Assembly: GCA_002786065.1 (NCBI GenBank)
Contig: NHNY01000007.1
Coordinates: forward strand, 586,155-650,154
From: Microcyclospora pomicola
Taxonomy: Eukaryota > Ascomycota > Dothideomycetes > Capnodiales
Direction of reading: 5' to 3'
DNA: 64,000 nt
Position numbers and translations under genes: made by a program. The notes below the pieces were generated by a model. The model searched no databases, was not told where the DNA came from, and saw nothing but the letters and a program-made list of their open reading frames with translations. Positions 2,581-64,000 of the stretch are shown here, in pieces (the first letter of the stretch is position 1; each line of letters starts with the position of its first letter).

Positions 2581-4368
2581 GCGCCTCCATGTTCACGAGT
2601 GTATGTGTGCTTCATTATCGTTTCGACTGGAAAGCGTTGGCGTTCTGGTGATGACATGGACCGGGACGGCTGGGAACGGCATTGGGCATGGAGTTATCGT
2701 AGAGGATTCTGGGCGGCGACCATGGGAAGGCTTGCAACTAAGTCATGAATCTCACGCAGGAACATAAATAATTTGCCGACGTGCTACAATAACGCTCACA
2801 CATCGTTGTGATTGACTTCCCCTTCGCTCCCACCCAGTAGAGCTGCGATACGTGTGTACACAGGGTTCGGCTTTCTTCGTGACAGACACCGCAAACCACT
2901 TGCACCATTAACATGTACGAAAGCTGCCAGACGAGGTGAAAACGTTCAATGCTCCAGACGACGAGTCGCCCGTCAGCTTTGCCGGAGCCTCGACCACCAG
3001 ATGTCTTGGAATCTGCATGGGATGGCTCGCAGGCTGCGCCACCTGTGATGAGAGATGTCTCGCATGGTTCGGGGCTTCTTTCGCCTTGTCATCATTCATC
3101 ATAGTACGGGCAATCGACGATGCCGCATGTGAGCTCCCCTGAACTGTCTTCGAGACCAAGACCAAAGCGACTGTAGTGACGTCCGACATCGAAAGTAGGA
3201 GAGACGATATCAGTACCAGCAACGAGTAGGCCTTCGACAGAAGCAAGCGATCGATCACATGTCACTTTTTCGAGGGCTGTGATGCTCGGCAGCCAATACC
3301 TCTGACGATTCTCGTCCACTTGGGTTGCGCAATCCCAGAGAACTTTCTCGTGATTCTGAAGTGTCGTATGAACCATGATGGTACTCAGCTTCTACCGAAA
3401 CATCACACGAGCCTCGTTTCTGGCGGATGTCGTCAAGAGAAGTCGTGTTGAGGGTGAGCTGCACGGTCATCGCAACCGCGAGAGCAACAGCACGCGCATA
3501 TGTCGGATTTCCTTCGAGTCGCATCCTCGATATGAGACTTGCGATATCGTGCCTTTCACTTGTGCTCTTTAGTCGTAGGGTCGACATCTGAGGGTTCGGA
3601 CCTCCGAGTCAATCGACTACAAGCAACACTCGTCCTAGATGAGCTCCGCTTCAGTATCGAAGGATACGATTGTGTACTCTCTTTCACGGAAGAGTGTCTG
3701 AGATCCTCGAATCGCGGCGCGCTCACTCGTGCTATCCTCGTCTGTGCAGCCTCCCAAGATTATAGGAGTACGCCAAACTTGAAGCGATCGTGATCTGACC
3801 ACTTCCTACTTCCATCACTGAGTATTGGCCGTGTAGGGTATTGACCAGAACATCTATGACCGCTGGCACCAAGCTCGAGTGTGGAATCGAAATCGAAGCC
3901 ATCAGTGCCGAGACTTGCACAGCGCAAGTGGTACCTCATCCGAGATCCTGCTCACGCGAGAAGCCAATCCGACATTCTTCGCATAACAAAATAACCACGC
4001 GCGGCTGATCTCAGCCGCAGCAACGCTGCACCGCCTACAACGTCGATACTTATTTTGATTTGTCTCTGTCGAGGTTAACAGTAAGCCTTGCCATACGTAC
4101 GTGTGAATTCCAGCCGACGCATTGAAGACGATCAAGTGAATGATTCCAGGTTTCACGAAACACGAGGATAGCCGTGATATTAGTGCCGATCGTCACCTCT
4201 CGAGGAATCAGGGCGTCAAAGAGTTCCGACTAGATGGCACTGTTGAGTGGAGATGCTATGCGTGGCGAGTCCGAATGCTATTGCTTTACCAAGTGTTGAC
4301 GACACTACAAACTCCTTCCGGATGAGGTCCAGGAAGATATGCTACGGTAGTCCATGCAGAGAAAGTCA
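2581..4368. other. Gene-poor 1.8-kb interval with a possible decayed coding relic
   Basis: No convincing intact gene lies between GCP2 and the LOG-family gene, which converge here. On the minus strand, three partly overlapping open frames (3255-3587, 3092-3376 and 2908-3258, about 94-116 codons each) and a short one at 3732-3920 follow one another in different frames. Parts look protein-like, for example LPSITALEKVTCDRSLASVE. I could not join them with plausible splice sites, so they are either a decayed gene or chance frames. I do not recognise a family. Confidence 0.3.
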
Positions 4369-5143
4369 TTATACAAACTTCAATCCGCCATTCTCCGACT
4401 GCTCCGTCTTCTTCCAGTCCAGTTTGAACCGGCCTTCCGCCCGTCGGTACTCGCTGAGCGCCTGAACGGCACCTTCTGCGTCCTCGACTTTGATCATGAT
4501 GTCTTTGTTGCCCGGAGATATGAAGCCTGCCTTGACAGCTTGGTCCCGCCACCGGAACAGGAAATCCCAGTAGCTGTCCACATCATAGACCACGATCGGC
4601 GCCGCGTGTATTCCGAGCTGGTTCCATGTGACCATCTCCATCAGCTCTTCCATGGTGCCGTATCCTCCTGGGAGCGCGATGAACCCACTCCCTGCTCCGC
4701 CCAAGCTCACTTCTGTCGCGAACATCTGCTTGCGAGTGTGCATGTCCTCGACAATAGTTGTCCGGCCATACTCGGTCTCGGAAATGACCTCGCGAAGGTC
4801 TCGTTTCGGGTCGTAGTTACGCTCCATGGCGAGAAGGGATCGTGGGATGATACCATGGACGCTGTCTGGACCTGCCAGGGAGACGAGAGTGCGTGCTAAC
4901 TCACCCATGACGCCGGTGGTGCCTCCTCCATAGATGAGCTTGATGTTGTGCTTGTGGAATGCTCCAGCGAGGGCGCGAGCTGCGGCAAGCGGTCCAGGTG
5001 AAGTGCCAGGACTAGCACCACAGCTGCAACGAGAAGTCAGTACTTAAATATACGCCATGCGAGCGGACTGAGACGTACAAGACGCATACCACTGCTTGAT
5101 GCTTGGCGTCATTAGTGGCCGAGGACATGATGGAAGAAGCCAT
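4369..5143 (-). CDS. LOG-family protein (nucleoside 5'-monophosphate phosphoribohydrolase)
   Basis: A Rossmann-fold protein of the LOG / lysine-decarboxylase-like family. Characterised members cleave cytokinin riboside 5'-monophosphate, or other nucleotides, to free base and ribose 5-phosphate. Exons on the minus strand are 5143-5079 and 5023-4369, with a 55-bp intron (GTACGT...TTGCAG). Splicing creates VCVFCGASPG, the family's N-terminal nucleotide-binding motif, and yields about 239 residues. The signature PGGYGTMEELMEMVTW is present (near residues 135-150), as is the YGGGTTGVMG loop. ATG 5143 (MASSIMSS) is chosen; ATG 5128 is a possible alternative. The fungal substrate cannot be told from sequence, so cytokinin activation is only one possibility. 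Confidence 0.9.
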
Positions 5144-5783
5144 GATCTCGAGTTCGAGGATGGCAAAGCGGGTGGGAGGAGCGAGACTGAGAAGCAGCAA
5201 ATCGTGGAAAGCTGGAGACTACTCAAATGGAGAAAAAGGAATTGGTATGAATGGGAAAGACACGGGTCTACTTATCCATTCAGGATCTGTCTGACGGGTC
5301 GTGAATGATGGAATGGAATCGAGTCCACCGCGTGATAAGTTTGTATTTGGGATGTGCATGATCGATCGATAGGCTCCAATGACTTCAGCGCGCCGTGGTT
5401 GATCTTCATGAATCCACGAAATGCCACACGAAGAAGCAACGTGTACAGCCATGAATCGCAGTTACCACTGCTGGATAGCGTGCAGTGCAAGATGATGAAT
5501 GGTATATTTGGGTGAATGCTCCGTACATGAGGCTACGAAGCATCGCGTAATAAGGTGAATCTGCACTCCGAGTCCCCTGCACCGTTTCAGTGATCTGCAT
5601 GACGACAGTGAGGCTCTGTGCACAGCATGATCGGCTATAGAGCTATCTTAAACCTCACTTCGGTTCCTTTGGACATAGAGGAAGAGATCTGCCACGTCCG
5701 ATCTCAGCTTCGAAGCTCTTTGTCCTTGGTCTCGAGAGACTGCGCTTCATACGCGATTCCCTGCCATCTTATTCTCTGCCTCG
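5144..5783. other. Intergenic, shared upstream region of LOG-family and Rab genes
   Basis: About 640 bp between two divergent genes. I see no further gene. Short frames here lack coding character. Confidence 0.6.
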
Positions 5784-6665
5784 ATGGCACAACCATGGGA
5801 TTACATAGCCAAGATCGTCTCCCTTGGTGATTCTGGCTCCGGTAAATCGAGTGTATAGCTCCCCCAATTCTCAGCTCTTGTCCACCAGTCCGTCCGCTGA
5901 TGACGGTCGATGATCTAGCTGACAATCAGGCTTTGTGAAGGCCGGTTTGTCTCCCACCACGATGTGACGATTGGCGTCGAGTTCGGCTCCAGAATCGTGC
6001 CAGTAGGACCGCCTGCGAGTCTGGAGTATAACATTAACAACCCAACGACTACCGCGCCCCCGAAAGCGCCCATGACGAAGAGCCCAAACGCGAAACGGGA
6101 TGTGGAGTCACAGCAGAAGCACATGAAGCTGTCCCTCTGGGATACAGCCGGGCAAGAGACGTACAAATCGATCACGCGATCATATTTCCGAGGCGCGTCT
6201 GGTGCGCTGCTGGTGTTCGACATCACGCGACGCAACACCTTCGATTCGGTCACATCATGGCTGCACGATCTACGGCAGATCGCCGAGGAGGATATCGTGG
6301 TGGTCCTGGTGGGGAACAAAAGCGATCTTGCGCCATCATCCCTTATCTCAAATCCGACGAGCAAGCAGGACGATAAGAACAAGCGACAGGTCACGCGAGA
6401 AGAGGCGGAGGAGTGGTGCCGAACGAATAAAGTCATGCAGTACGTGGAGACGTCGGCCAAGTCTGGAGAGAACGTGGAACGGGCGTTCCTGGAGGTCTCG
6501 GAGCGGATCTACCAGAACATCGAGGCAGGGAAATATGATCTACACGATCGGAGAAGCGGTGTGAAAGGGCCTGGTGCTGGGGGCGGAGCAAATGCAGCGC
6601 GGACGATCAACTTAGGACAGAAGAGCGGGAATACAGGTCAGAAGAAGGGCTTTGGATGTTGTTAG
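5784..6665 (+). CDS. Rab-family small GTPase (Rab2/Rab4/Ypt4-like)
   Basis: A membrane-trafficking GTPase. Exons are 5784-5852 and 5919-6665; the 66-bp intron (GTATAG...ATCTAG) is in phase 0 and lies within the P-loop region, joining GDSGSGKSS to LTIRLCEGRF. The product is about 271 residues. Visible motifs are G1 GDSGSGKS (residues 15-22), switch I DVTIGVEFG, G3 WDTAGQE (near 97), G4 GNKSDL (near 156), G5 ETSAKSG and a C-terminal GCC for double geranylgeranylation. The stretch SYFRGASGALLVFDITRRNTF is typical of the Rab2/Rab4/Rab14 branch. About 38 extra residues, rich in Pro, Thr and Lys (NPTTTAPPKAPMTKSPNAKR), are inserted between switch I and switch II. The subfamily call is tentative. 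Confidence 0.9.
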
Positions 6666-7431
6666 AGGGGTTGTACATTTCACATTCTCGCACTGATGCA
6701 TTGCATGGCGTTTTCGTAGGGCTATTCCAGCGCAGCGTCGCTTACAGTTGCATCTAATTTCTGCTGATATATGCCATCGCAATGCAGCGATTTCAGATCA
6801 AGGTTCACTCTCCGGCGCACATAGCCTGTTCTTGGCACCCATACAGATCACTCAGGTCTGACCTCTGGCTGTCGTATCGCGCTCATATCACAGTACGCTC
6901 GCGCTACAATGCTGCGCCTCGTCGAGCCGCAAACTGGGACGACGCTTCGAGCTCGTTGTGGACTCTGACAAGTGATAGCGCTCCGAACTTGGCTTGTTTG
7001 GCATGTATTTGTCTTCCGCTTCGGGACGCTATTTCTGTTCCGCTCGTTGGTACTGGCAACACTCAGCAGATATCCTTCTAGCTTGCAATTGCACGGCGCC
7101 ATGGGGTGAGGCCAGTCTAGCACTCATGTGCTGCTCTGGGATGGTAAGAGCCGTGTTCTGCCGTGGCTCCACCTCGCTGGGAGTCCCAAAGTCGCCAGGA
7201 GCACTCCCTCGTTGAAAAGGCTGCACCTCGCCGTGAGCTCCCACCTTCTCCATCTTCACCAAGCATCTCTTCCATTCATCACTTTCATGCTCAATTGACG
7301 GCTTTCAACTTTTTCATCAGTATCCTTCTTCCATCGTTATTGTATCACCAGCCAACCAATTTTGGAACATTCTTTATTGCTGCAGCAGGAGAACATCGGG
7401 CGAAGGCTCTAGTCCTTGCAGATAACTCATC
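6666..7431. other. Intergenic region
   Basis: About 770 bp with no supported gene. The part just before 7432 is pyrimidine-rich and is likely promoter and leader of the following gene. Confidence 0.55.
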
Positions 7432-9786
7432 ATGCCAGCGATGCCAAATAACCACGCGAGAGCCATCCCGATAGCGCCGCGTCCAGTGGATCCGCCTCCT
7501 AGCCTCTCTGTCCATCTGACGACTGAATCAAGAGCTCTCATCGCTCACTTCACCTCACAATTCGCGCAACTGATGCGCTGTGGGCGGAATGGAATCGAGA
7601 ACTGGTGCAAAGCCTACATTGAGAGTGGCGAAGCGTACTCCGATCCTTCGCCGGATCGTTTCTTTACCAATGAAGCGATCGTGGCGAAGAAGCTTGAGAT
7701 GTACGACAACTTTCGCACGCATTATGCACTCTTCATCACAGCTCGCGTGCTGTCTCCCGGCCCATGCTGCGCACACTTGCTGGCGAACAGACTGGCGGCT
7801 ATGGCCTCGCGGGATCTCTACCAACGAGATGGAGCGGATGAGTGGTATCGCCTGGTTGAAGAGGATCTGGAGAAGGTGTTTCGTCGGGCTGTGGCCACCG
7901 AGATGCCGATCATGACCGGGCCCTCGCATGGGTTCGCTTACCGCCATAATATGGTGTCAGCCAGCACCGTACTGCAGAGTCCATACTCACAGCCGCCGTT
8001 CAACAATAGCCACCATGGTTCACAAATGTCACCCATGCATGGAAGCATGGCATACCCCTGGCGATGGCCTAGAATGCAGACCAAGCTCCAATTCCCTGCC
8101 ATGAATCCCAGCATAGGCAACAATATGTGGTATCCTAATCTGGCGCTAAGTGGAATAGGAACTTTGCCAGATATCAGCATGGCAAATCAATCGCAGCTGG
8201 ACAGCGACCCTTGGAGAGGCGGATGGCAAGCTCAAGCACACTTTGACAACACCTTTGACCTGCAGCTGCCCAATGGAGCACAAAGTTATAGGGTACAAGA
8301 CTTGAACACGCCTGCATTCCTGCCAGACTTCTTACAGCCGGAGCGCGGAGGGCGTAACGGATCGGTGTCCGTAGATCCTGCCAATATCATGCCAGTTGAC
8401 ATGTCCGGGACACGTCAGACTCGGCCATGGTTGCAGGAACAGGCAAAGGTTCAACCACCTCGGATTTCGAGTGATCAAGCCACGAAGGTTATGCCAAATC
8501 AAGATCCGCTGCAGCACATGTCATCAATCGGTGCAGCCCAGCCTGTACAGCAGCCCTTGGCTTCATCCGGCTCGGACGTGCAATCCTTTGCGCCTTGTGC
8601 ATCATCCCCTGACAGCAGGGCTCCCAACATAAACGATCTCGGTCGTGCTGTCACGCAGGAGCCTAGAACTGATCCCGTCGATCAGGAAATAGCCATAGGC
8701 GCCTTTTCTGTCGATCAAAATATGGACCAGCGATCACATCAGGATACTTCTCGAGCCCTGAGCAATTTCTGCTCGATCTCCAAGTTGACCCCTGCCCAGT
8801 CAAGCCGACACGGCCGCGTCAAGCATGAGGCAAATGATCAGCCACGTCCTGCATTTGATAGTGGCGCAAGATTGCACCAGAGGCCGCCACTAGTATCACG
8901 AAATCCAGCCGATATAGAGCAGCATGTCCTTCGTCGTGTATTCACAGAGCTGATCGTCCGGAACAGCATCAGCAACAAGAGGCGTAGATCTTCAGGTGCG
9001 ACGCCTAAGCTGAGCAGTGACGAGAACTTGACGCCCACCTTACCACAACCAAGTGAGGGGTCTTCAAGGACGATGCCGCAACTGAACCTGGCTCCAGAAA
9101 CTCTGGTACCGTCTCCCATGATGGGAAATGAGCCTGGACCTGACTGGGATAGATATGCTCTAGCAGGCGAGGATGAAGTGTGGCTTACGCAAGTGGTACA
9201 AGCGCTACATGCGGATAGCCCTCCATCTAAAATGTATCAGGAGGATCCCCTGTCGTCCTTCGCAGCGCCATCGAAACCAGAGGATCGGTACAACACTGAG
9301 AATCCCATACCCGGAGATTACGCTTTGCCACAAGAAGTTGCCTTGGGAGAGGAGTCGGCTGAACAGTTCAGGAACCATGGCCAGCAATCACAGGAGGGTT
9401 TCGAAGTCAAGGCAGGATCACCAAGTCTTGGGGATTCGATGGAACCCACTCAATGGGATGCTCGTATGGCGCAAGCTCAGTCCGCTCGGTTCGCGGAAGA
9501 GGATCTCGAGCTGTCTAGATACGATGGAGCAGAGCCTCTCGCAGCTTCAGGGGCACAATATATGCCCTGTACTGGCGCAGCACAACAGCGGACAGTACAG
9601 AGCATTGAACGAGCCGTTAGCAACAGTGAGACCTCATTCGAGAGGACAGAGGCTAGACAAGTTCATGCTGAGCTGTTCACACAGGCTGCATCGACATTGT
9701 CGAACGTTCACAACCCCGGAGGCGAGTCCCAGCTGGAAATGGACTTGAGGGCAGCACTCATCCGTGCGCTAGCTGGTGGGCGCTGA
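7432..9786 (+). CDS. Hypothetical protein, mostly disordered, 784 residues
   Basis: A single uninterrupted frame of 785 codons starting at ATG 7432 (MPAMPNNHAR; ATG 7441 is equally possible). I do not recognise the family. Residues about 25-165 look folded: a helix-rich stretch containing ALIAHFTSQFAQLMRCGRNG, ENWCKAYIESGEAYSDPSPD and DEWYRLVEEDLEKVFRRA. After that the protein is low-complexity, rich in Gln, Ser, Pro and Met, with isolated hydrophobic patches. A basic KRRRSSG segment (near residue 520) could be a nuclear signal. Intrinsic disorder with a short helical N-terminus is common in fungal regulatory proteins, but no DNA-binding domain is visible and no function is claimed. The long uninterrupted frame argues that it is a real gene. 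Confidence 0.7.
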   Translation: MPAMPNNHARAIPIAPRPVDPPPSLSVHLTTESRALIAHFTSQFAQLMRCGRNGIENWCKAYIESGEAYSDPSPDRFFTNEAIVAKKLEMYDNFRTHYALFITARVLSPGPCCAHLLANRLAAMASRDLYQRDGADEWYRLVEEDLEKVFRRAVATEMPIMTGPSHGFAYRHNMVSASTVLQSPYSQPPFNNSHHGSQMSPMHGSMAYPWRWPRMQTKLQFPAMNPSIGNNMWYPNLALSGIGTLPDISMANQSQLDSDPWRGGWQAQAHFDNTFDLQLPNGAQSYRVQDLNTPAFLPDFLQPERGGRNGSVSVDPANIMPVDMSGTRQTRPWLQEQAKVQPPRISSDQATKVMPNQDPLQHMSSIGAAQPVQQPLASSGSDVQSFAPCASSPDSRAPNINDLGRAVTQEPRTDPVDQEIAIGAFSVDQNMDQRSHQDTSRALSNFCSISKLTPAQSSRHGRVKHEANDQPRPAFDSGARLHQRPPLVSRNPADIEQHVLRRVFTELIVRNSISNKRRRSSGATPKLSSDENLTPTLPQPSEGSSRTMPQLNLAPETLVPSPMMGNEPGPDWDRYALAGEDEVWLTQVVQALHADSPPSKMYQEDPLSSFAAPSKPEDRYNTENPIPGDYALPQEVALGEESAEQFRNHGQQSQEGFEVKAGSPSLGDSMEPTQWDARMAQAQSARFAEEDLELSRYDGAEPLAASGAQYMPCTGAAQQRTVQSIERAVSNSETSFERTEARQVHAELFTQAASTLSNVHNPGGESQLEMDLRAALIRALAGGR

Positions 9787-18104: not shown

Positions 18105-19433
18105 ATGCATTTCTCAAGCTCCCTCGTCCTTCTGGCCGCCGCGGCCTACGCTGCTCCCGTGAGTCTACCCTCGTGAGCGGACAATACGAAGCTTTGCTGA
18201 CAACAAGGACAGGTGGACAAGCGTCAGACAAGCGATGTCAGCAACACGCTGTCAGAATTCCCCGAGACCGTAAGCTCGGCCTTCGGCATCGTCAAGCGCC
18301 AGGTCGAAGAGCTTGTCGACAGCCTCACTTCTAGCACAGGCATGAAGCGCGACGACAAGCTCGACCTATTGGCCGATCTCTCCAGCGTCACTGCCGACAT
18401 CAAGCGTGACAGCACAGTCTCTGAGATTGAGGAGGACTTCAAGAGCGTATCGGACAACCTGAAGCGCGATGACAAGCTCGCTCTCCTGGCCGATCTCTCC
18501 AGCGTCACTGCTGACATCAAGCGGGATGACAAGCTCAACCTCGGTGCCGATCTCTCTAGCGTCACCGCCGACATCAAGCGCGACGACAAGCTCAACCTTG
18601 GTGCCGACCTCTCCAGCATCACCGCCGATATCAAGCGCGATGACAAGCTCAACCTTGGTGCCGACCTCTCCAGCATCACCACTGATATTAAGCGCGACGA
18701 CAAGCTCAACCTTGGTGCCGACCTCTCTAGCATCACCACTGATATCAAGCGCGACGACAAACTCGCTCTTCCTGTCGATCTCTCCAGCGTCACTGCCGAC
18801 ATCAAGCGCGACGACAAGCTTAACCTCGGTGCCGACCTCTCTAGCATCACCACTGATATCAAGCGCGACGACAAGCTTAACCTTGGTGCCGACCTCTCTA
18901 GCATCACCACTGATATCAAGCGCGACGACAAGCTCAACCTTGGTGCCGACCTCTCCAGCATCACCACTGATATTAAGCGCGACGACAAGCTCAACCTTGG
19001 TGCCGACCTCTCTAGCATCACCACTGATATCAAGCGCGACGACAAACTCGCTCTTCCCGTCGATCTCTCTAGCGTGACTGCCGATGTCAAGCGTGACGAC
19101 AAGATCGACCTGCTAGCAGACCTGTCCAGCGTAACCGCTGATATCAAGCGTGACGACAAGCTTGACCTGCTCGCAGACCTGTCTAGTGTGACCGCCGATG
19201 TCAAGCGTGACGACAAGCTTGACTTGCTCGCAGACTTGTCCAGCGTAACTGCTGACATCAAGCGTGACGACAAGCTTGACCTGCTCGCAGACTTGTCCAG
19301 TGCCACTGCTGACATTAAGCGTGACGATAAACTGGGTCTGGACCTCGAACTCTCCAGCGTCACCATTAGCACCAAGCGTGATGACAAGCTCGACCTTGCT
19401 GCCGACCTCTCCAGCATCACTGCAGACATCTAA
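18105..19433 (+). CDS. Secreted Kex2-processed tandem-repeat peptide precursor
   Basis: Exon 1 (18105-18158) encodes a signal peptide, MHFSSSLVLLAAAAYAAP. A 54-bp intron (GTGAGT...GGACAG) follows, then exon 2 (18213-19433), giving about 424 residues. After a leader with Lys-Arg sites (VDKR, GIVKR, GMKR) come 19 tandem units: 18 start with DDK and have the form DDKLxLxxDLSSxTxDI followed by KR, and one is divergent (DSTVSEIEEDFKSVSDNL). I count 21 Lys-Arg sites. Kex2 cleavage and trimming would release 17-residue acidic, amphipathic peptides in several variants (NLGAD..ITT, LALPVD, LDLLAD). No Cys, Tyr, Trp or Phe occurs in the main repeats, so Tyr-based ustiloxin-type cyclisation is unlikely. 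Units 4-12 are nearly identical in DNA, pointing to recent copying. This is the general architecture of fungal Kex2-processed repeat proteins; the peptide itself is not one I recognise. Confidence 0.88.
18339..19430 (+). repeat. Tandem 57-bp coding repeats (19 units)
   Basis: The units are 57 bp long (one is 60 bp, the last is 51 bp plus stop), in phase with the peptide repeat. Central copies differ by only a few synonymous changes. A higher-order pattern (several NLGAD units followed by one LALPVD unit) appears twice, at about 18645-18806 and 18930-19091. Confidence 0.9.
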
Positions 19434-58969: not shown

Positions 58970-60660
58970 TCTGTAATAATAATCCATATGTACATTAGTA
59001 ACCAAAGGCGGTGAAGGCCCAGAATAGTCCATTGGCAGCTTTCCTATCTATTTGTGTTTCTGTAGCTCTGTAACACAACCATCTTCAAACTATCAAAACA
59101 TCGCTATCTTGAGTGGCATCATCATTAAGAACACAGTATGTACAGTCTGTTAATGATGTCAATCCTCAAAGAGCATCGCCGCCTACCGAACCGACGCCCG
59201 CACCAAATTGTCATATAAAGGTTATCCTATCTCGAGTCTTTAGGGAGTCTCCCTTGTACCGATTGAACTGCTGCAAAAGATACGACATGTACAATGGCAC
59301 ATAAGAAGAGAGGCTACGTAATTGCGAGGTCTGGGGAATATAGATCAAAATTGATCTATATCCTAGCAGCAACTTAGTAAGAGCTTCAGGAAGGATAAAA
59401 ATGGCGCTGAACGCAGAGAAGGGCAAATATCGGGCTGCACAACTGTTAAAGAAAAGCCTAGATAGCGTAAGGTTGTCCAGTTTGTAGATCCCTAGGTAAA
59501 AGCACTTACTAACCTAGAAGTATTTTAGTGTACTCTCTAAATCCTAGCTTGTAATGCTCGGGGTGAGGACAAGTGTCTATACAAAGCGTACAATCCTACG
59601 CCTAAGCTCAAACCCCTAAGGAATCCTCCTAAAAAGATTCTTGGATTCAATACAGTCAGCAGCCTAGCCATAATTCAGCATTCCTCCCAAATATCGATTT
59701 ATAGGGTTTGGGTAGACATCTTGCAGATATACTGCGTGTACAATCGTCCGCTCTAGCTATGGCTAGTAGAAAATCCCTGGAGCAGGCGTCTATAGGTCAA
59801 TGCAGTTAGTAGCCCGGCAGAGATTTAGCAGCGCCTCCGAGTTTCTAGTTCCTTAGGATAGTTGCTAGATCGGCAAATATACGGTATGCACAATCTTGTC
59901 TTCTAGCTATGGCTGCGTAAAAGCTCCTTAAAAAGAGAATAGAAGGTCAATAGAGTAGGCAGCCTAGCCGAGATTCAGCAACATTCCCAAGTTTTCAATT
60001 GCAGAGGACAACCGTAGGGTCAGCAAATATACCGCCTGCACAATCCGACCGTCTAGCTGTAGCTGCGTAGAAGATCTCCGAAGCAGAACCTACAGGTCAT
60101 TAGAGTTAGCAGCCTAGCCGAGTTTCAGCAACACCCCCGAGTTTCTAGTTCTAGAGGATAATCGTAGGGCCAGCAGATATACCGCCTGCACAATCCAGCC
60201 GTCTAGCGGTAGCTACGCAGAAGTTGTCCGAAGCAGGACCTCTAGGTTAATAGAGTCGGCAGCCTAGCTAAGATTTAGTAATGCTCCTAAGCTACTACTA
60301 GCTTGGTCTAGTTGCAAGGCTAGCAACTATACAGTGTGCATCAACTACAGTGTAAGGCTTAGCAGTTATAAAGCTCCTTGATCTACAGACATCAAGCTGT
60401 GCTACTCACTAGTCTAGCTGCAATCCAGCATTCCTCCTAAGTCGCTCATTTCCCGTCCAAATCAGAAGGCTAGGGAATATACAGCATGCACAATTATTGG
60501 GGTAGGAGGCAGTCACGTACAAACGCGGGGATCACACCTTTCGAAGGCCGTTAAGCTGCCACCCTGTAGCGATCTAGCATGTTTCCTAAGCATCTTTCTG
60601 CAAGCACTAAGTGTACGGCACGCAAATATACTATCTGTACAAACATAGCATAACGCTCCA
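58970..60660. repeat. Degenerate tandem array, 150-bp period, about 11-12 units
   Basis: A short motif of the form CAAATATACxGCxTGCACAATC recurs at almost constant spacing. The ACAAT-type core (or its decayed form) begins near 58991, 59142, 59291, 59439, 59590, 59739, 59890, 60040, 60190, 60340, 60490 and 60639, with intervals of 148-151 bp. A second landmark, AGCCTAGCCGAGATTCAGCA and variants, keeps the same period (about 59660, 59811, 59961, 60110, 60261, 60410, 60560). The units from 59890 to 60300 are best preserved, with divergence growing outward. High TpA content suggests RIP-type decay. No coding capacity is seen. The period matches the DNA length on one nucleosome core. Confidence 0.85.
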
Positions 60661-61717
60661 CTTAGACTTTAATGGCGTTCAAGAATCTTACCTGCTTTGT
60701 AGATTTCAGTCCTGCCCCTTATTTGCTTATCTGTCTAACATCTATTTCCTTCATAGCAGAACTTCGTTCGCTACGCTTTCGGCATGTACATTCCTTACTC
60801 GTTAACAGCCCTAGGCTAGTAAGCAAGCATCGCTTATGTGTTGGTTCAGTTCACTTGCTAATCATTCTTTACTATAGCTATCTTCAGTTAACAGTGTCAG
60901 CTGATACAGTCAGCCGTCTTCTGCACATGAAAGGGCGTTGATTATTCACGCTTAAACGCTTTGTTTCTTTCTGTTTCCTTAACATTCCTTTCGACACTAT
61001 CTTCTCCCTAACCTTCTCTCTACCTTACAACTACATCTGCTCTAACATTCCTTAGCCTTCCTACTGCTATTTAGTCTCAATCCCTCCTTCGAATCTACGT
61101 GTACAACGCGGCATTAAGCAGAACTTAGCATAGCGGTCCTCGACCTTAAGGCGCTCATTAGAAAGAAGAAGGTCAGAAATGAGTACTAGCTACATCTTTA
61201 CATCAACAGAAACAGGGTATGTCTTTATTCACTCTAGTAGAGGCCACCATGGGGCGGGTTGGGGCGGAGGTGGAGGAAAATTTGGGGCTTACCCAATTGT
61301 TTGGGTTCTTCTATTTAACCTCTATATTGTGCGGGGACCCATGTTATTCGGGTCCCCGGTCCTGAATTTGGGTTTAATTGGGGAAGTTACCCTAATAGAA
61401 ATTGGGGAATGACCGTTAGAGCGTTAGAAGCTACGCTAGCTCTAAAAGGAAGGTTAGACGCTAATCTTACATACTAGTATGAAACGTTTATACTAACGCT
61501 ATTTCGAATGCCAATCACAGTGCCAATCACAGTGCCAATCACAGTGCTGCTTATATCACGTGTAGGAGATAGTTTATAAGACACAAGGCATTACGATATA
61601 GTGGGTATCATCGGTTTTTAGTAGCTATCTACGCTACTATATGGGTATCATTGTTGTTTAGTAGCCAACCTTGCTACTAGGAGCCTAACTAAGCAAACAG
61701 CCTAGCCTAGTCTAGCC
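60661..61717. other. AT-rich non-coding DNA with a G-rich hairpin island and CCAAT triplet
   Basis: No gene supported. At 61251-61287 there is a G-rich tract on the plus strand. At 61332-61358 lies a perfect 9-bp inverted repeat (CGGGGACCC / GGGTCCCCG, 9-nt loop). At 61509-61542 three TGCCAATCAC decamers occur at 12-bp spacing. The 77-codon frame 61179-61412 covers the G-rich island but has no coding look. Confidence 0.5.
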
Positions 61718-62396
61718 TCAATTGCCGTCCATCCTTACAGGGCTCTCCATAAGAAGCTTAAGTAGCTGCATGTCTTTCTGCTGGATAGTGACACGCTTCG
61801 AGTGAATAGCAAGCAGGTTCGTCACTAGAAACAGGGGATTAGCTAAGTAAAAGAACTAGAAGCTAAACAGACGACTTACTCTCGAAGACTCGAACCAAGA
61901 ACGCCTCTGCAGCCTCCTGAAGACACTCAAGCGCGCTAGCCTGGAACCTGAGATCGAACTTGTAACCCAGGCCAATCTCACGGACGAGACGAGCAAAAGG
62001 CGTTCTCGGGATGAGAAGTGAGACACTCTTCTGAAAGTGGCGAATCTCTTTGATTTGAGAGACTAAACACAAGTTAGTAAGTGCCAATCACTATGCCAAT
62101 CACTATTACTCACGCTCTGGCCTGATAGCTTTCTTCTGTCCATGCTTGTTCTTCCTGTACTTTCCAGGGATCTTGTTGAAAGGCACCCAGTCACGACCTT
62201 GTGTGAGCCTCTTACGGACTGTCTTAGACTTTTTTGGAGCGAGAGTCTTTCTTGGACCCTTTCCGCCTGTAGATTTGAAGCCTGTCTGTCTCCTGACTGC
62301 AGTACGCTTGATGGGTGATGCGTCGACCCGGATGCGCGTCGAAGGGGTCTCGCCGTCTTGCTGGGTGGTCGCGGGTGGTGGATTGGCGTCGGCCAT
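61718..62396 (-). CDS. Divergent histone H3 variant with H3-like tail and N-terminal extension
   Basis: Exons on the minus strand are 62396-62114, 62062-61880 and 61824-61718, with introns of 51 bp (GTGAGT...TTTAG, TACTAAC branch site) and 55 bp (GTAAGT...TCTAG). Phase is kept; 190 residues. A 30-residue extension comes first ([16 protein letters not shown]...). Then [20 protein letters not shown] aligns with the canonical H3 tail, keeping the positions of Lys9, Ser10 and Lys14. A basic insert of about 30 residues ([20 protein letters not shown]...) follows. The histone fold is complete only after splicing: [78 protein letters not shown], then [10 protein letters not shown]. Loop 1 has canonical H3 length (seven residues between REI and LRFQ). 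The fold is certain from motif order; function is unknown. The start is favoured by the good CACAATGGC context. Confidence 0.88.
62063..62113 (-). other. Intron 1 of H3-variant gene carrying a CCAAT-decamer pair
   Basis: 51 bp, GTGAGT donor, TTACTAAC branch, TTTAG acceptor. About half of it is the doubled GTGATTGGCA-type element (minus-strand sense) also found in the flanks. Confidence 0.8.
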
Positions 62397-63259
62397 TGTG
62401 TGGGAGTGTGAGGTACCCAGGATTGTGATTGGCAAGTGATTGGCAGGTATGTAGATGGCGGACGAGTTTTGATGGGTTTCGCAGTGTCTGGCGATGCGAG
62501 GAACGACAGCGGGGCAGCAGGTGTGATTGGCAGTGATTGGCAGCAATGTAGGGCAGCTTGTCAAAAGGATGTGCAGGGGTTTGTCAAAGTGAAGGTGATG
62601 ACTGGTGGAACGTTGAGGCGGTGACGTCATAAAAATTGGGTGGCTGGGGCGGGGTAATCACGTGGCGACCTCTGATTGGTCAGGTAAGCGAACCGTCACA
62701 TGCCTGAAGTGAAGCCTGGGATGTTTTTTCCAAAACCGCTGAGAGTGATTGGCTTTGTGATTGGCAGTGTATGACGCTGAATCCCGCGACATCTGGCAGT
62801 GTGAGCGCATAGCGCGCGAAATAAGGCTGTTGTAGACACTTGTCGCTTTTGGGTAACTTGAAAATAAACCGAAAAATCTGAAAAGCTCTAGGGAGAGGAT
62901 AGTTAGCTTAAGAGCACTATATCGACAACAAGAGCTCGAAAGGACGTACTAATAATCGTTTTACAACTTTCTAGAAGGAGAAATTTAGTTCTTTTGCTTA
63001 TAGCGGGTATAAAAATTTCGTATACATACTAGGTGTGATTGGCAGTGATTGGCAGTAAAGAGTGATTTTTAGCTCATAAGGGGCTACACAAAGTCGTTAG
63101 GTTACGCGAAAATGAATTTCTGTAGATAGCAAGGAACAGTACATGTGGAAGGTGTGATTGGCAGTGATTGGCACTAGTAATAGAGACGATCTCAAAGTAA
63201 AGCTAGAAAAGAATGTTAGCAATTAGGTAATATATACATGTGAATAAAAGGAGCTTACA
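62397..63259. other. Spacer between the two H3-variant genes with paired CCAAT elements
   Basis: About 860 bp. The decamer GTGATTGGCA (complement TGCCAATCAC, containing CCAATCA) occurs at 62425, 62436, 62523, 62533, 62757, 63035, 63045, 63154 and 63164, plus one mismatch copy at 62745, mostly in adjacent pairs. The first four lie 29-147 bp upstream of the 61718-62396 gene's ATG. No gene is seen in the spacer. Confidence 0.75.
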
Positions 63260-63789
63260 CTAGTCTAGCTCGTAGTATGGGTCGCCATTCATCCTATGTC
63301 GGAGCATCCGGATCAGGCGCATGTCCTTAACTGCCATCGTGACGCGTTTTGCGTGGAGGGTCGCGAGTAAGGACATCTCGAACTCTGTTATAAGAAATGC
63401 CTCCGCAGCTTCCTGTAAGGCTCCTAACGCAGAGCCTTGAATGCGAAGCTGACCCTCTGATGATATATCTGACATTATCTCACGTACAAGACGCGAAAAG
63501 GGAAGGCGCGGTATACATAGAACGGTCGTTTTCTGGATCTGTCGAATAGCGCGTAATGCAGCAGTGCCAGGCTTAAGTCTTCGCTTTTTTCGTGACTGAG
63601 ACTGCTGTCCCATACGAGGTCGTTTTAAAGGGAACTTGACACTGCGTTTTGCTACAAGTTTCGTGCGCCCTTTACGTATGATAGCTAATTTTTTTCGTTA
63701 GTTAGAAGATCGGTGTGTTAAAAGAAGGCATAAATTACATACCATTGCTAGAAGACAATGCAGTAGATGCAGGTGTAAGAGGCGGCATT
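63260..63789 (-). CDS. CENP-A-like (CenH3-type) divergent histone H3 variant
   Basis: Exons on the minus strand are 63789-63744 (MPPLTPASTALSSSN) and 63684-63260. The 59-bp intron (GTATGT...ATTAG) has tandem CTAAC branch sites; 156 residues. A basic tail (RKGRTKLVAKRSVKFPLKRP) follows, then the fold: [80 protein letters not shown]. Between REI and LRIQ there are nine residues, two more than H3. This longer loop 1, with AAEAF and TLHA, is the pattern of CENP-A. The H3 KSTGGK tail is absent. Tyr/Asp-rich end (NGDPYYELD). A ~90-bp pyrimidine tract just upstream (63790-63880) looks like an active promoter or leader. It is more divergent than usual fungal CenH3, so it may be an extra copy and not the main centromeric histone. 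Confidence 0.88.
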
Positions 63790-64000
63790 GTAGAGGGATT
63801 AATAGCTGATAAGGAATGGTAGAGGAGGTCAGAAATCAGAGAGAGAGGGAAGGAGAGGGAAGAGGAGAAGCAATCTAAGAATAAAAGCTTACATATGTTG
63901 AGAATCACGCTAGATCTACGCTAGTGATATCCCTATTATCACGCTTTAAAACTGGTTCTTAAATCGCTTACTTTTGATTTTGTTTATTTATTAATATTGC
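63790..64000. promoter_or_regulatory. Promoter/leader of CENP-A-like gene, AT-rich edge
   Basis: On the minus strand, 63800-63880 is a near-continuous C/T tract directly before the ATG at 63789, as in fungal 5' leaders. The last 100 bases to the window edge are AT-rich with no gene. Confidence 0.55.

What the first reader, a model, noticed from the sequence alone, without database searches (positions are those of the whole stretch)
61718..63789. Tandem pair of divergent histone H3 variants in AT-rich DNA
Two spliced genes in the same orientation encode full histone folds that resemble neither canonical H3 nor each other closely, yet both share the unusual IPRxPFxRLVREI stretch and AAEAF helix. 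This suggests they arose from one another or from a common divergent ancestor. Canonical fungal H3 is almost invariant, so such divergence inside a gene-poor repeat zone is unexpected. They may be accessory chromatin components specific to a mobile or accessory compartment. Intact splice sites, open frames and good start contexts argue that they are functional.
Basis: partly seen in the sequence, partly recalled or inferred. Interest (0 to 1): 0.88.

Follow-up and report, generated by a model that had tools for sequence, protein, structure and literature searches.

The report
Jumping gene carrying two histones
Two odd histone H3 genes in a fungus turn out to be passengers of a DNA transposon that spread to several places in the genome, a kind of arrangement already reported but here unusually intact and accompanied by a short DNA motif repeated through the element's non-coding parts, which makes it a good test case for whether mobile DNA can bring its own chromatin to dodge silencing.

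Summary
Two intact, spliced, divergent H3-type genes (190 and 156 aa, both on the minus strand) lie at 61718-63788. They are not free-standing accessory genes: they lie in an 8,259-bp hAT DNA transposon whose left end is window 61238; the window stops inside it. The element also encodes a 359-aa protein without Pfam match and a BED/hAT-dimerisation transposase. The 23.4-Mb assembly shows ten left ends in different flanks; six pair exactly with a right end by an 8-bp target duplication. hATs carrying H3-like genes are in print for Pyrenophora tritici-repentis (2013) and Pseudocercospora fijiensis and relatives (2019). New here: an intact, intron-bearing pair of H3 genes, evidence that both proteins were held by selection, and a 10-bp motif (GTGATTGGCA, 37 copies, mostly tandem pairs, none in predicted exons) whose tandem pairs were found nowhere else in the assembly. 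One protein keeps the H3 K9-K18 tail but lacks R8, which Neurospora DIM-5 needs; the other has no H3 tail. I read this as element-encoded, silencing-resistant chromatin, possibly recruited by the motif, as in Arabidopsis VANC anti-silencing. Element identity is close to certain; the mechanism is inference.

The parts
61230..61237 (.). CACTCTAG, presumed left copy of the 8-bp target-site duplication of this insertion
   Evidence: Flank of the left end. The right-end partner of this insertion was not found, so this site's duplication is inferred from the six exact pairs at other insertions.
61238..64000 (.). Left 2,763 bp of an 8,259-bp hAT transposon; the window (end of contig C56) stops inside it
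   Evidence: 99.9-100% match in 10 other contigs from window 61235-61238 on, with unrelated flanks apart from the C14 tip, which repeats the C3 flank. Full copy in contig C14.
61238..61258 (+). Left terminal inverted repeat, TAGAGGCCACCATGGGGCGGG; 19 of 21 positions match the right end
   Evidence: Ends printed, compared by eye.
61718..61824 (-). Gene 1 (H3-like, 190 aa), exon 3
61825..61879 (-). Gene 1, intron 2 (55 nt, GT..AG)
61880..62062 (-). Gene 1, exon 2: most of the histone fold
62063..62113 (-). Gene 1, intron 1 (51 nt, GT..AG), holding two GTGATTGGCA motifs
62114..62396 (-). Gene 1, exon 1: N-terminal extension and H3-like tail ([18 protein letters not shown])
63260..63684 (-). Gene 2 (H3-like, 156 aa), exon 2: whole histone fold, loop 1 two residues longer than H3
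63685..63742 (-). Gene 2 intron (58 nt, GT..AG)
63743..63788 (-). Gene 2, exon 1
61509..61542 (.). Three tandem GTGATTGGCA motifs (as TGCCAATCAC), 3' of gene 1
62082..62103 (.). Motif pair inside gene 1 intron 1
62425..62445 (.). Motif pair upstream of gene 1
62523..62542 (.). Motif pair upstream of gene 1
62757..62766 (.). Single motif between the genes
63035..63054 (.). Motif pair between the genes
63154..63173 (.). Motif pair 3' of gene 2

Best explanation
Shown: the two genes are cargo of a hAT DNA transposon with ten left ends in the assembly of a fungus in which RIP has acted. Inferred from sequence: the two proteins are real H3-type histones kept by selection, which pair with host H4. 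Inferred, and less sure: they serve the element by building nucleosomes that cannot take silencing marks. Gene 1 has K4R, A7G and R8F and no second ARKS site; gene 2 lacks the H3 tail. The repeated GTGATTGGCA pairs would be the address at which an element protein (the BED transposase or the 359-aa protein) or a host CCAAT-type factor binds, so that the element's own copies stay open. Order: expression, H4 pairing, deposition on the element, failure of H3K9/K27 methylation, continued transcription and transposition.
For: hAT identity: transposase pieces match zf-BED (E 3.4e-5) and Dimer_Tnp_hAT (E 1.3e-12); six exact 8-bp target duplications; inverted ends. Recent spread: of ten left ends, nine have one and the same difference from the C14 copy in 2,763 bp, and C12 has that one plus three (collapse caveat below). 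Selection: gene 1 against gene 2 over the fold, pN 0.365 and pS 0.864 (saturated); shuffled pairs give pN 0.73 and pS 0.77. Residues invariant in seven H3/CenH3 references are kept in 26 of 35 (gene 1) and 27 of 35 (gene 2), against 25 of 59 and 26 of 59 at other positions (Fisher p 0.003 and 0.002). Motif: 37 copies in 18 clusters, 17 of them with two or three, none in 4,789 predicted coding bp; 0 of 20,000 random placements kept all clusters out of exons; 100 of 100 tandem pairs in the assembly lie in element copies, 0 for the reversed control. Marks: in Neurospora R8A abolishes DIM-5 activity in vitro, and R8-G12 are the residues DIM-5 needs (PMC3248561, passages). Parallels: VANC binds short tandem motifs in non-coding parts of its own VANDAL elements (PMC5735166, passages); fungal transposons carrying TET/JBP genes are read as silencing escape (PMC12730594, passages).
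Against: No expression, H4-binding or localisation data. In Neurospora R8A, beside wild-type H3, showed little or no reduction of DNA methylation, though selected R8A transformants are shown among those with partial loss; a strong global dominant effect of gene 1 is thus not expected, and local deposition would be needed. An old copy (C37) is RIP-mutated: 68 of its 79 differences in the right-hand 1,892 bp are RIP-type. The element's own RIP indices are intermediate (TpA/ApT 1.09, second index 1.14), so young copies are not clearly free of past RIP. Published H3-carrying hATs of P. fijiensis and relatives were all RIP-killed (PMC6710886), so the cargo does not give lasting protection. The transposase of the only full copy has an in-frame stop near the end of exon 4. 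Selection on the proteins may partly predate capture. The motif may serve transposition only. Identity between copies is partly an effect of assembly collapse: eleven contigs hold the same 2,763-bp stretch, and ten of them end at its inner edge.
Confidence: 0.35

Rival explanations
1. Passenger capture: a hAT took up an H3-type gene by chance (transduplication), it duplicated inside the element and drifts without function, as discussed for Pyrenophora and Pseudocercospora.
For: Published reading of both precedents (PMC3538342 section 20 part 1; PMC6710886 Results and Discussion part 1). Sequence is far from canonical H3.
Against: pN far below saturated pS between the two genes, and core residues kept preferentially; exons of both genes open and splice sites intact; H3 cargo reported in separate hAT lineages.
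Confidence: 0.3
2. Transposition factors: the H3-like proteins help the transposase, by compacting or synapsing the element or by tethering it to host nucleosomes, with the motif as transposase-binding site.
For: Transposase has a BED zinc finger; motifs lie near both ends as well as inside.
Against: Subterminal sites would suffice for that (recalled for other hATs); here motifs run through introns and between genes. No direct test.
Confidence: 0.2
3. Dominant interference with host chromatin: many copies flood the cell with an H3 that dilutes host H3 and weakens heterochromatin genome-wide.
For: [quoted passage not shown] ten left ends here.
Against: Gene 1 keeps K9; R8A beside wild type showed little or no reduction in the constructed strains; a genome-wide effect would harm the host.
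Confidence: 0.12
4. Gene 2, or both, is a captured CenH3 that brings centromere-like chromatin to the element.
For: Loop 1 of gene 2 is two residues longer than H3; both genes share five residues with some CenH3 references and not with the three H3s; gene 1 is 52 of 92 identical to fission yeast Cnp1, marginally above its best H3 value of 52 of 94.
Against: No W in loop 1 (LRFQ and LRIQ against RWQ in the host CenH3); identity to the host CenH3 is 48 of 95 and 49 of 97, below that to H3; tree unresolved. Neocentromeres at ten sites should be lethal (established knowledge).
Confidence: 0.03

Closest known systems
H3L-carrying hAT of Pyrenophora tritici-repentis (Manning et al. 2013, PMC3538342)
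   Same: [quoted passage not shown] ESTs there (section 20 part 1 and passages read).
   Different: About 5.6 kb with one H3L, against 8.26 kb with two different H3-type genes here. No motif array is described in the part read. Sequence relatedness not testable with these tools.
H3-carrying hAT of Pseudocercospora fijiensis, Cercospora and Sphaerulina (Dhillon et al. 2019, PMC6710886)
   Same: Long hAT (9.5-9.9 kb), one or two H3-like copies per element, the second with a 16-aa insertion, 20-bp inverted ends, 8-bp duplications, AT-rich blocks (abstract and Results read).
   Different: There the element copies are RIP-dead, lack introns and were read as a captured transcript or retrocopy, with no other direct or inverted repeats found (Discussion part 1). 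Here both genes are intact and carry introns, and a motif array is present.
VANDAL/VANC anti-silencing of Arabidopsis (Hosaka et al. 2017, PMC5735166)
   Same: A short motif in tandem repeats in the element's non-coding parts, introns included (passages).
   Different: VANDAL DNA transposons of a plant, with VANC proteins in place of histones. Whether any protein here binds the motif is unknown.
TET/JBP-carrying DNA transposons of fungi (Kojima 2025, PMC12730594)
   Same: DNA transposons, hAT-type ones included, carrying a chromatin-related gene read as escape from silencing (passages).
   Different: The cargo is an enzyme that oxidises methylcytosine, not a histone; the hAT-type families there make 7-bp duplications, against 8 bp here.

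Membership tests
hAT superfamily DNA transposon | Transposase with hAT C-terminal dimerisation domain | tested here: met
   PF05699 E 1.3e-12 on the last exon; zf-BED PF02892 E 3.4e-5 on exons 1-2; exon 4 alone gave no Pfam match
hAT superfamily DNA transposon | 8-bp target-site duplication | tested here: met
   Of 10 left ends, 6 pair exactly with a right end; C12/C37 agrees in 7 of 8; C4/C9 shares eight bases offset by one (by eye); C7 and C56 have no partner among 8 right ends
hAT superfamily DNA transposon | Short terminal inverted repeats | tested here: met
   19 of the first 21 positions match (ends printed, compared by eye)
hAT superfamily DNA transposon | Intact transposase frame in the copy read (bears on autonomy, not on superfamily) | tested here: not met
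   In-frame TGA near the end of predicted exon 4 in the only full copy (C14); the old C37 copy lacks that stop but has three others in the 132-aa stretch compared
H3L-carrying hAT (Pyrenophora type) | hAT transposase, central ORF and H3-like gene between the same ends | tested here: met
H3L-carrying hAT (Pyrenophora type) | Sequence homology of transposase, central ORF and H3L to the published elements | not testable with these tools
   No fungal sequence collection is held, and the texts read give no sequences
Canonical histone H3 | Near-invariant tail and fold | tested here: not met
   50-53 of 94 fold residues identical to three canonical H3s; tail changed in gene 1, no H3 tail match in gene 2
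CenH3 (CENP-A/Cse4) | Longer loop 1 with W (RWQ) and clearly closer kinship to CenH3 than to H3 | tested here: not met
   Loop 1 longer in gene 2 only; no W in either; identity to four CenH3s 47.9-56.5% (gene 1) and 42.7-54.3% (gene 2), to three H3s 54.3-55.3% and 53.2-56.4%; tree unresolved
VANC-type motif-guided anti-silencing | Element-specific short motif in tandem, restricted to non-coding parts | tested here: met
VANC-type motif-guided anti-silencing | Element-encoded protein that binds the motif and removes silencing marks | not testable with these tools
   Needs binding assays and ChIP

The most novel reading that the evidence does not exclude
The transposon carries its own chromatin: a pair of H3 variants that cannot take H3K9 or H3K27 silencing marks, placed on the element's own copies through arrays of GTGATTGGCA in its introns and spacers, so that a fungus equipped with RIP fails to silence it while it spreads.
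Probability: 0.2. Interest if true: 0.9.

Novelty: new variant of a known kind. Interest (0 to 1): 0.58.

Why it matters
H3-carrying hATs were described as cases of gene capture, in most species with dead copies. An intact pair of selected, intron-bearing H3 genes with an element-private motif array gives the question 'why do hATs keep taking histone H3?' a concrete object: two proteins and one DNA motif that can be expressed, bound and mapped. If the anti-silencing reading holds, histones join DNA demethylases and VANC-type proteins as tools by which mobile DNA escapes epigenetic defence.

Tried and rejected
Subtelomeric block: the pair sits at ends of many contigs, and TTAGGG arrays exist at ends of other contigs, but ten of the eleven contigs end where a shared repeat stretch ends, and flanks and target duplications show dispersed insertions. 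Accessory chromosome: no evidence. Chance ORFs: excluded by profile matches and splice structure. CenH3 capture: see rivals. Structure prediction of gene 2 exon 2 from the single sequence gave mean pLDDT 53.2 and was not used further; gene 1 was not folded and no fold search was run. Viral contigs: no relative of gene 2 or of the transposase fragment; the other collections were not scanned. Related fungal genomes: none held for G000, so no selection test between species. Papers: of eight searches, the listings gave two primary reports of H3-carrying hATs (PMC3538342, PMC6710886). One search listed 20 of 496 and 15 of 25 papers, so others may exist; PMC4994206 holds the terms in its reference list only, PMC8616336 and PMC9594970 gave no such case in the passages seen. 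Most subscription papers and bioRxiv preprints are outside that library. Host species not identified.

Full report
1. The observation. Both genes exist as described. Gene 1 (minus, 62396-61718, three exons) encodes 190 aa; gene 2 (minus, 63788-63260, two exons) encodes 156 aa. The three introns are 51-58 nt with GT..AG ends. Both match Pfam Histone far over its cut-off. The shared IPRxPFxRLVREI and AAEAF stretches are there.

2. What they sit in. The window is the end of contig C56 of an unnamed 23.4-Mb assembly of 58 contigs. From 61238 to the window end the sequence recurs at 99.9-100% identity in ten other contigs, whose flanks differ, except that the 57-bp tip of C14 repeats the C3 flank. 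Contig C14 runs on: from TAGAGGCCACC to GGTGGCCTCTA the element measures 8,259 bp. Order in the window's orientation: gene 1 (-), gene 2 (-), a gene for 359 aa without Pfam match at E 0.1 (+), a transposase predicted with five exons (+). The transposase pieces hold a BED finger and the hAT dimerisation region.

3. It is a transposon that moved. Ten left ends have different flanks, and eight right ends were found. Six pairs share an exact 8-bp duplication: C2/C14, C3/C47, C42/C22, C46/C36, C30/C10, C47/C6. C12/C37 agrees in 7 of 8, the difference being of RIP type. C4/C9 shares eight bases offset by one (by eye). C7 and the window's own C56 have no partner. Flanks at the eight other sites measured have TpA/ApT of 1.36-2.05, against 0.57 in the first 50 kb of the window; beside the window's copy it is 1.59. 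The insertions thus tend to sit in RIP-like blocks, as reported for P. fijiensis (AT-rich blocks). The element itself is intermediate (TpA/ApT 1.09, second index 1.14).

4. An old copy. C37 holds a copy covering element positions 2674-8259 at 95.1 and 95.8% identity, interrupted by an insert of about 7.2 kb flanked by a 5-bp overlap. In the right-hand 1,892 bp, 71 of 79 differences are C>T or G>A seen from the young copy, 68 of them in CpA/TpG context. RIP has thus acted in this lineage and has met this family before.

5. Limits of the copy comparison. Ten of the eleven contigs with the 2,763-bp stretch end at its inner edge, which suggests a collapsed graph edge. The identity of the H3 region is therefore not eleven independent readings. 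At the other end, six right ends (C47, C36, C22, C10, C6, C9) share two differences from C14, and C6 and C10 have a third, so copies are near-identical rather than identical. The only full transposase read (C14) has an in-frame stop at element 7343-7345, near the end of predicted exon 4. Whether other copies are open cannot be seen.

6. The histones. Over the fold, gene 1 and gene 2 are 49 of 96 identical to each other. The maximum-likelihood tree joins the two genes with weak support (72/65), flags long branches and leaves five of six inner branches open; it does not settle their origin. Both have R63P and D106M, absent from the seven references, which favours one ancestor. Constraint: pN 0.365 against saturated pS 0.864 (shuffled pairs 0.73 and 0.77), and superfamily-invariant residues kept in 26 of 35 and 27 of 35 against 25 of 59 and 26 of 59 elsewhere. 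H113, K115, R116, V117, T118 and D123 are retained in both (read from the alignment; numbering and roles recalled). Part of this selection may predate capture.

7. The tails. In the alignment, gene 1 has K4R, A7G and R8F and keeps K9, S10, T11, G12, G13, K14, P16, R17 and K18; no second ARKS site is visible (by eye). Gene 2 shows no H3 tail (one search aligns it from the end of the tail on). In Neurospora, R8A abolishes DIM-5 activity in vitro and K4L does not; R8A in vivo lowers H3K9me3 and DNA methylation when it is the only H3, with little or no reduction beside wild type in the constructed strains, although selected R8A transformants are shown among those with partial loss (PMC3248561, passages). 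Gene 1 nucleosomes should thus be poor DIM-5 substrates, but a strong global effect is not expected. R8F itself does not appear in the passages I saw.

8. The motif. GTGATTGGCA occurs 37 times in the element, in 18 clusters, 17 of them tandem pairs or triplets 10-12 bp apart. None touches the 4,789 predicted coding bp, and four of nine predicted introns hold some. Random placement kept all clusters out of exons in 0 of 20,000 trials. TGATTGGCA is absent from the other 61.2 kb of the window. Tandem pairs: 100 in the assembly, all within element copies, control 0. Subtracting about 199 that I infer for the element copies leaves about 69, against about 44 expected from base composition (my arithmetic, not a call): single motifs elsewhere are near chance, though above the reversed control. 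The core ATTGG is also a CCAAT box (recalled), so a host factor is possible. The layout resembles that of VANC motifs in VANDAL elements (PMC5735166, passages).

9. Known relatives. Manning et al. 2013 (section 20 part 1 and passages) and Dhillon et al. 2019 (abstract, Results and Discussion part 1) describe hATs with H3-like genes. This element is of that kind. It differs in holding two intact genes with introns (against intronless, RIP-dead copies in P. fijiensis and one gene in Pyrenophora) and in the motif array. Introns argue against a recent transcript capture for this pair, though introns could have been gained later. Descent from the published elements could not be tested.

10. Verdict. 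My estimates: element identity about 0.97; functional H3-type proteins about 0.7; anti-silencing as their role about 0.35; motif-guided private chromatin about 0.2.

Noticed in passing
G000, whole assembly: No canonical H3 and no canonical H4 was found; the H3-family hits were the host CenH3 (C34:521151-521635) and the transposon genes, H4 gave a gene on C55 at 74% over 53 residues. Five further Histone-family hits on C34, C13 and C51 were not identified. Probably unassembled or withheld; if real it would be remarkable.
   Followed up: partly
G000 C12:1-2763 and C37:93378-106168: These look like the two ends of one old, RIP-mutated insertion (duplication 7 of 8), yet the H3-bearing 2.75 kb on C12 differs from the young left ends only by three RIP-type changes in its first 14 bp. 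Assembly collapse or gene conversion.
   Followed up: partly
G000 C37 (element position 6368-6372): Insert of about 7.2 kb in the old hAT copy with a 5-bp overlap at its ends, as an LTR retrotransposon would leave.
   Followed up: no
window 18105-19433: Probable secreted Kex2-type repeat protein: signal-like start, likely intron, then many KR-DDKLNLGADLSSITADI-like units (57-bp tandem repeat); no Pfam match over its cut-off in the part scanned.
   Followed up: partly
window 59644-60496: Decayed 150-bp tandem repeat array, stretches 60-85% alike between units, next to the insertion.
   Followed up: no
L030 and L015 (C14), element 7343-7345: In-frame TGA near the end of predicted transposase exon 4 in the only full copy; the RIP-damaged C37 copy does not have it.
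   Followed up: partly
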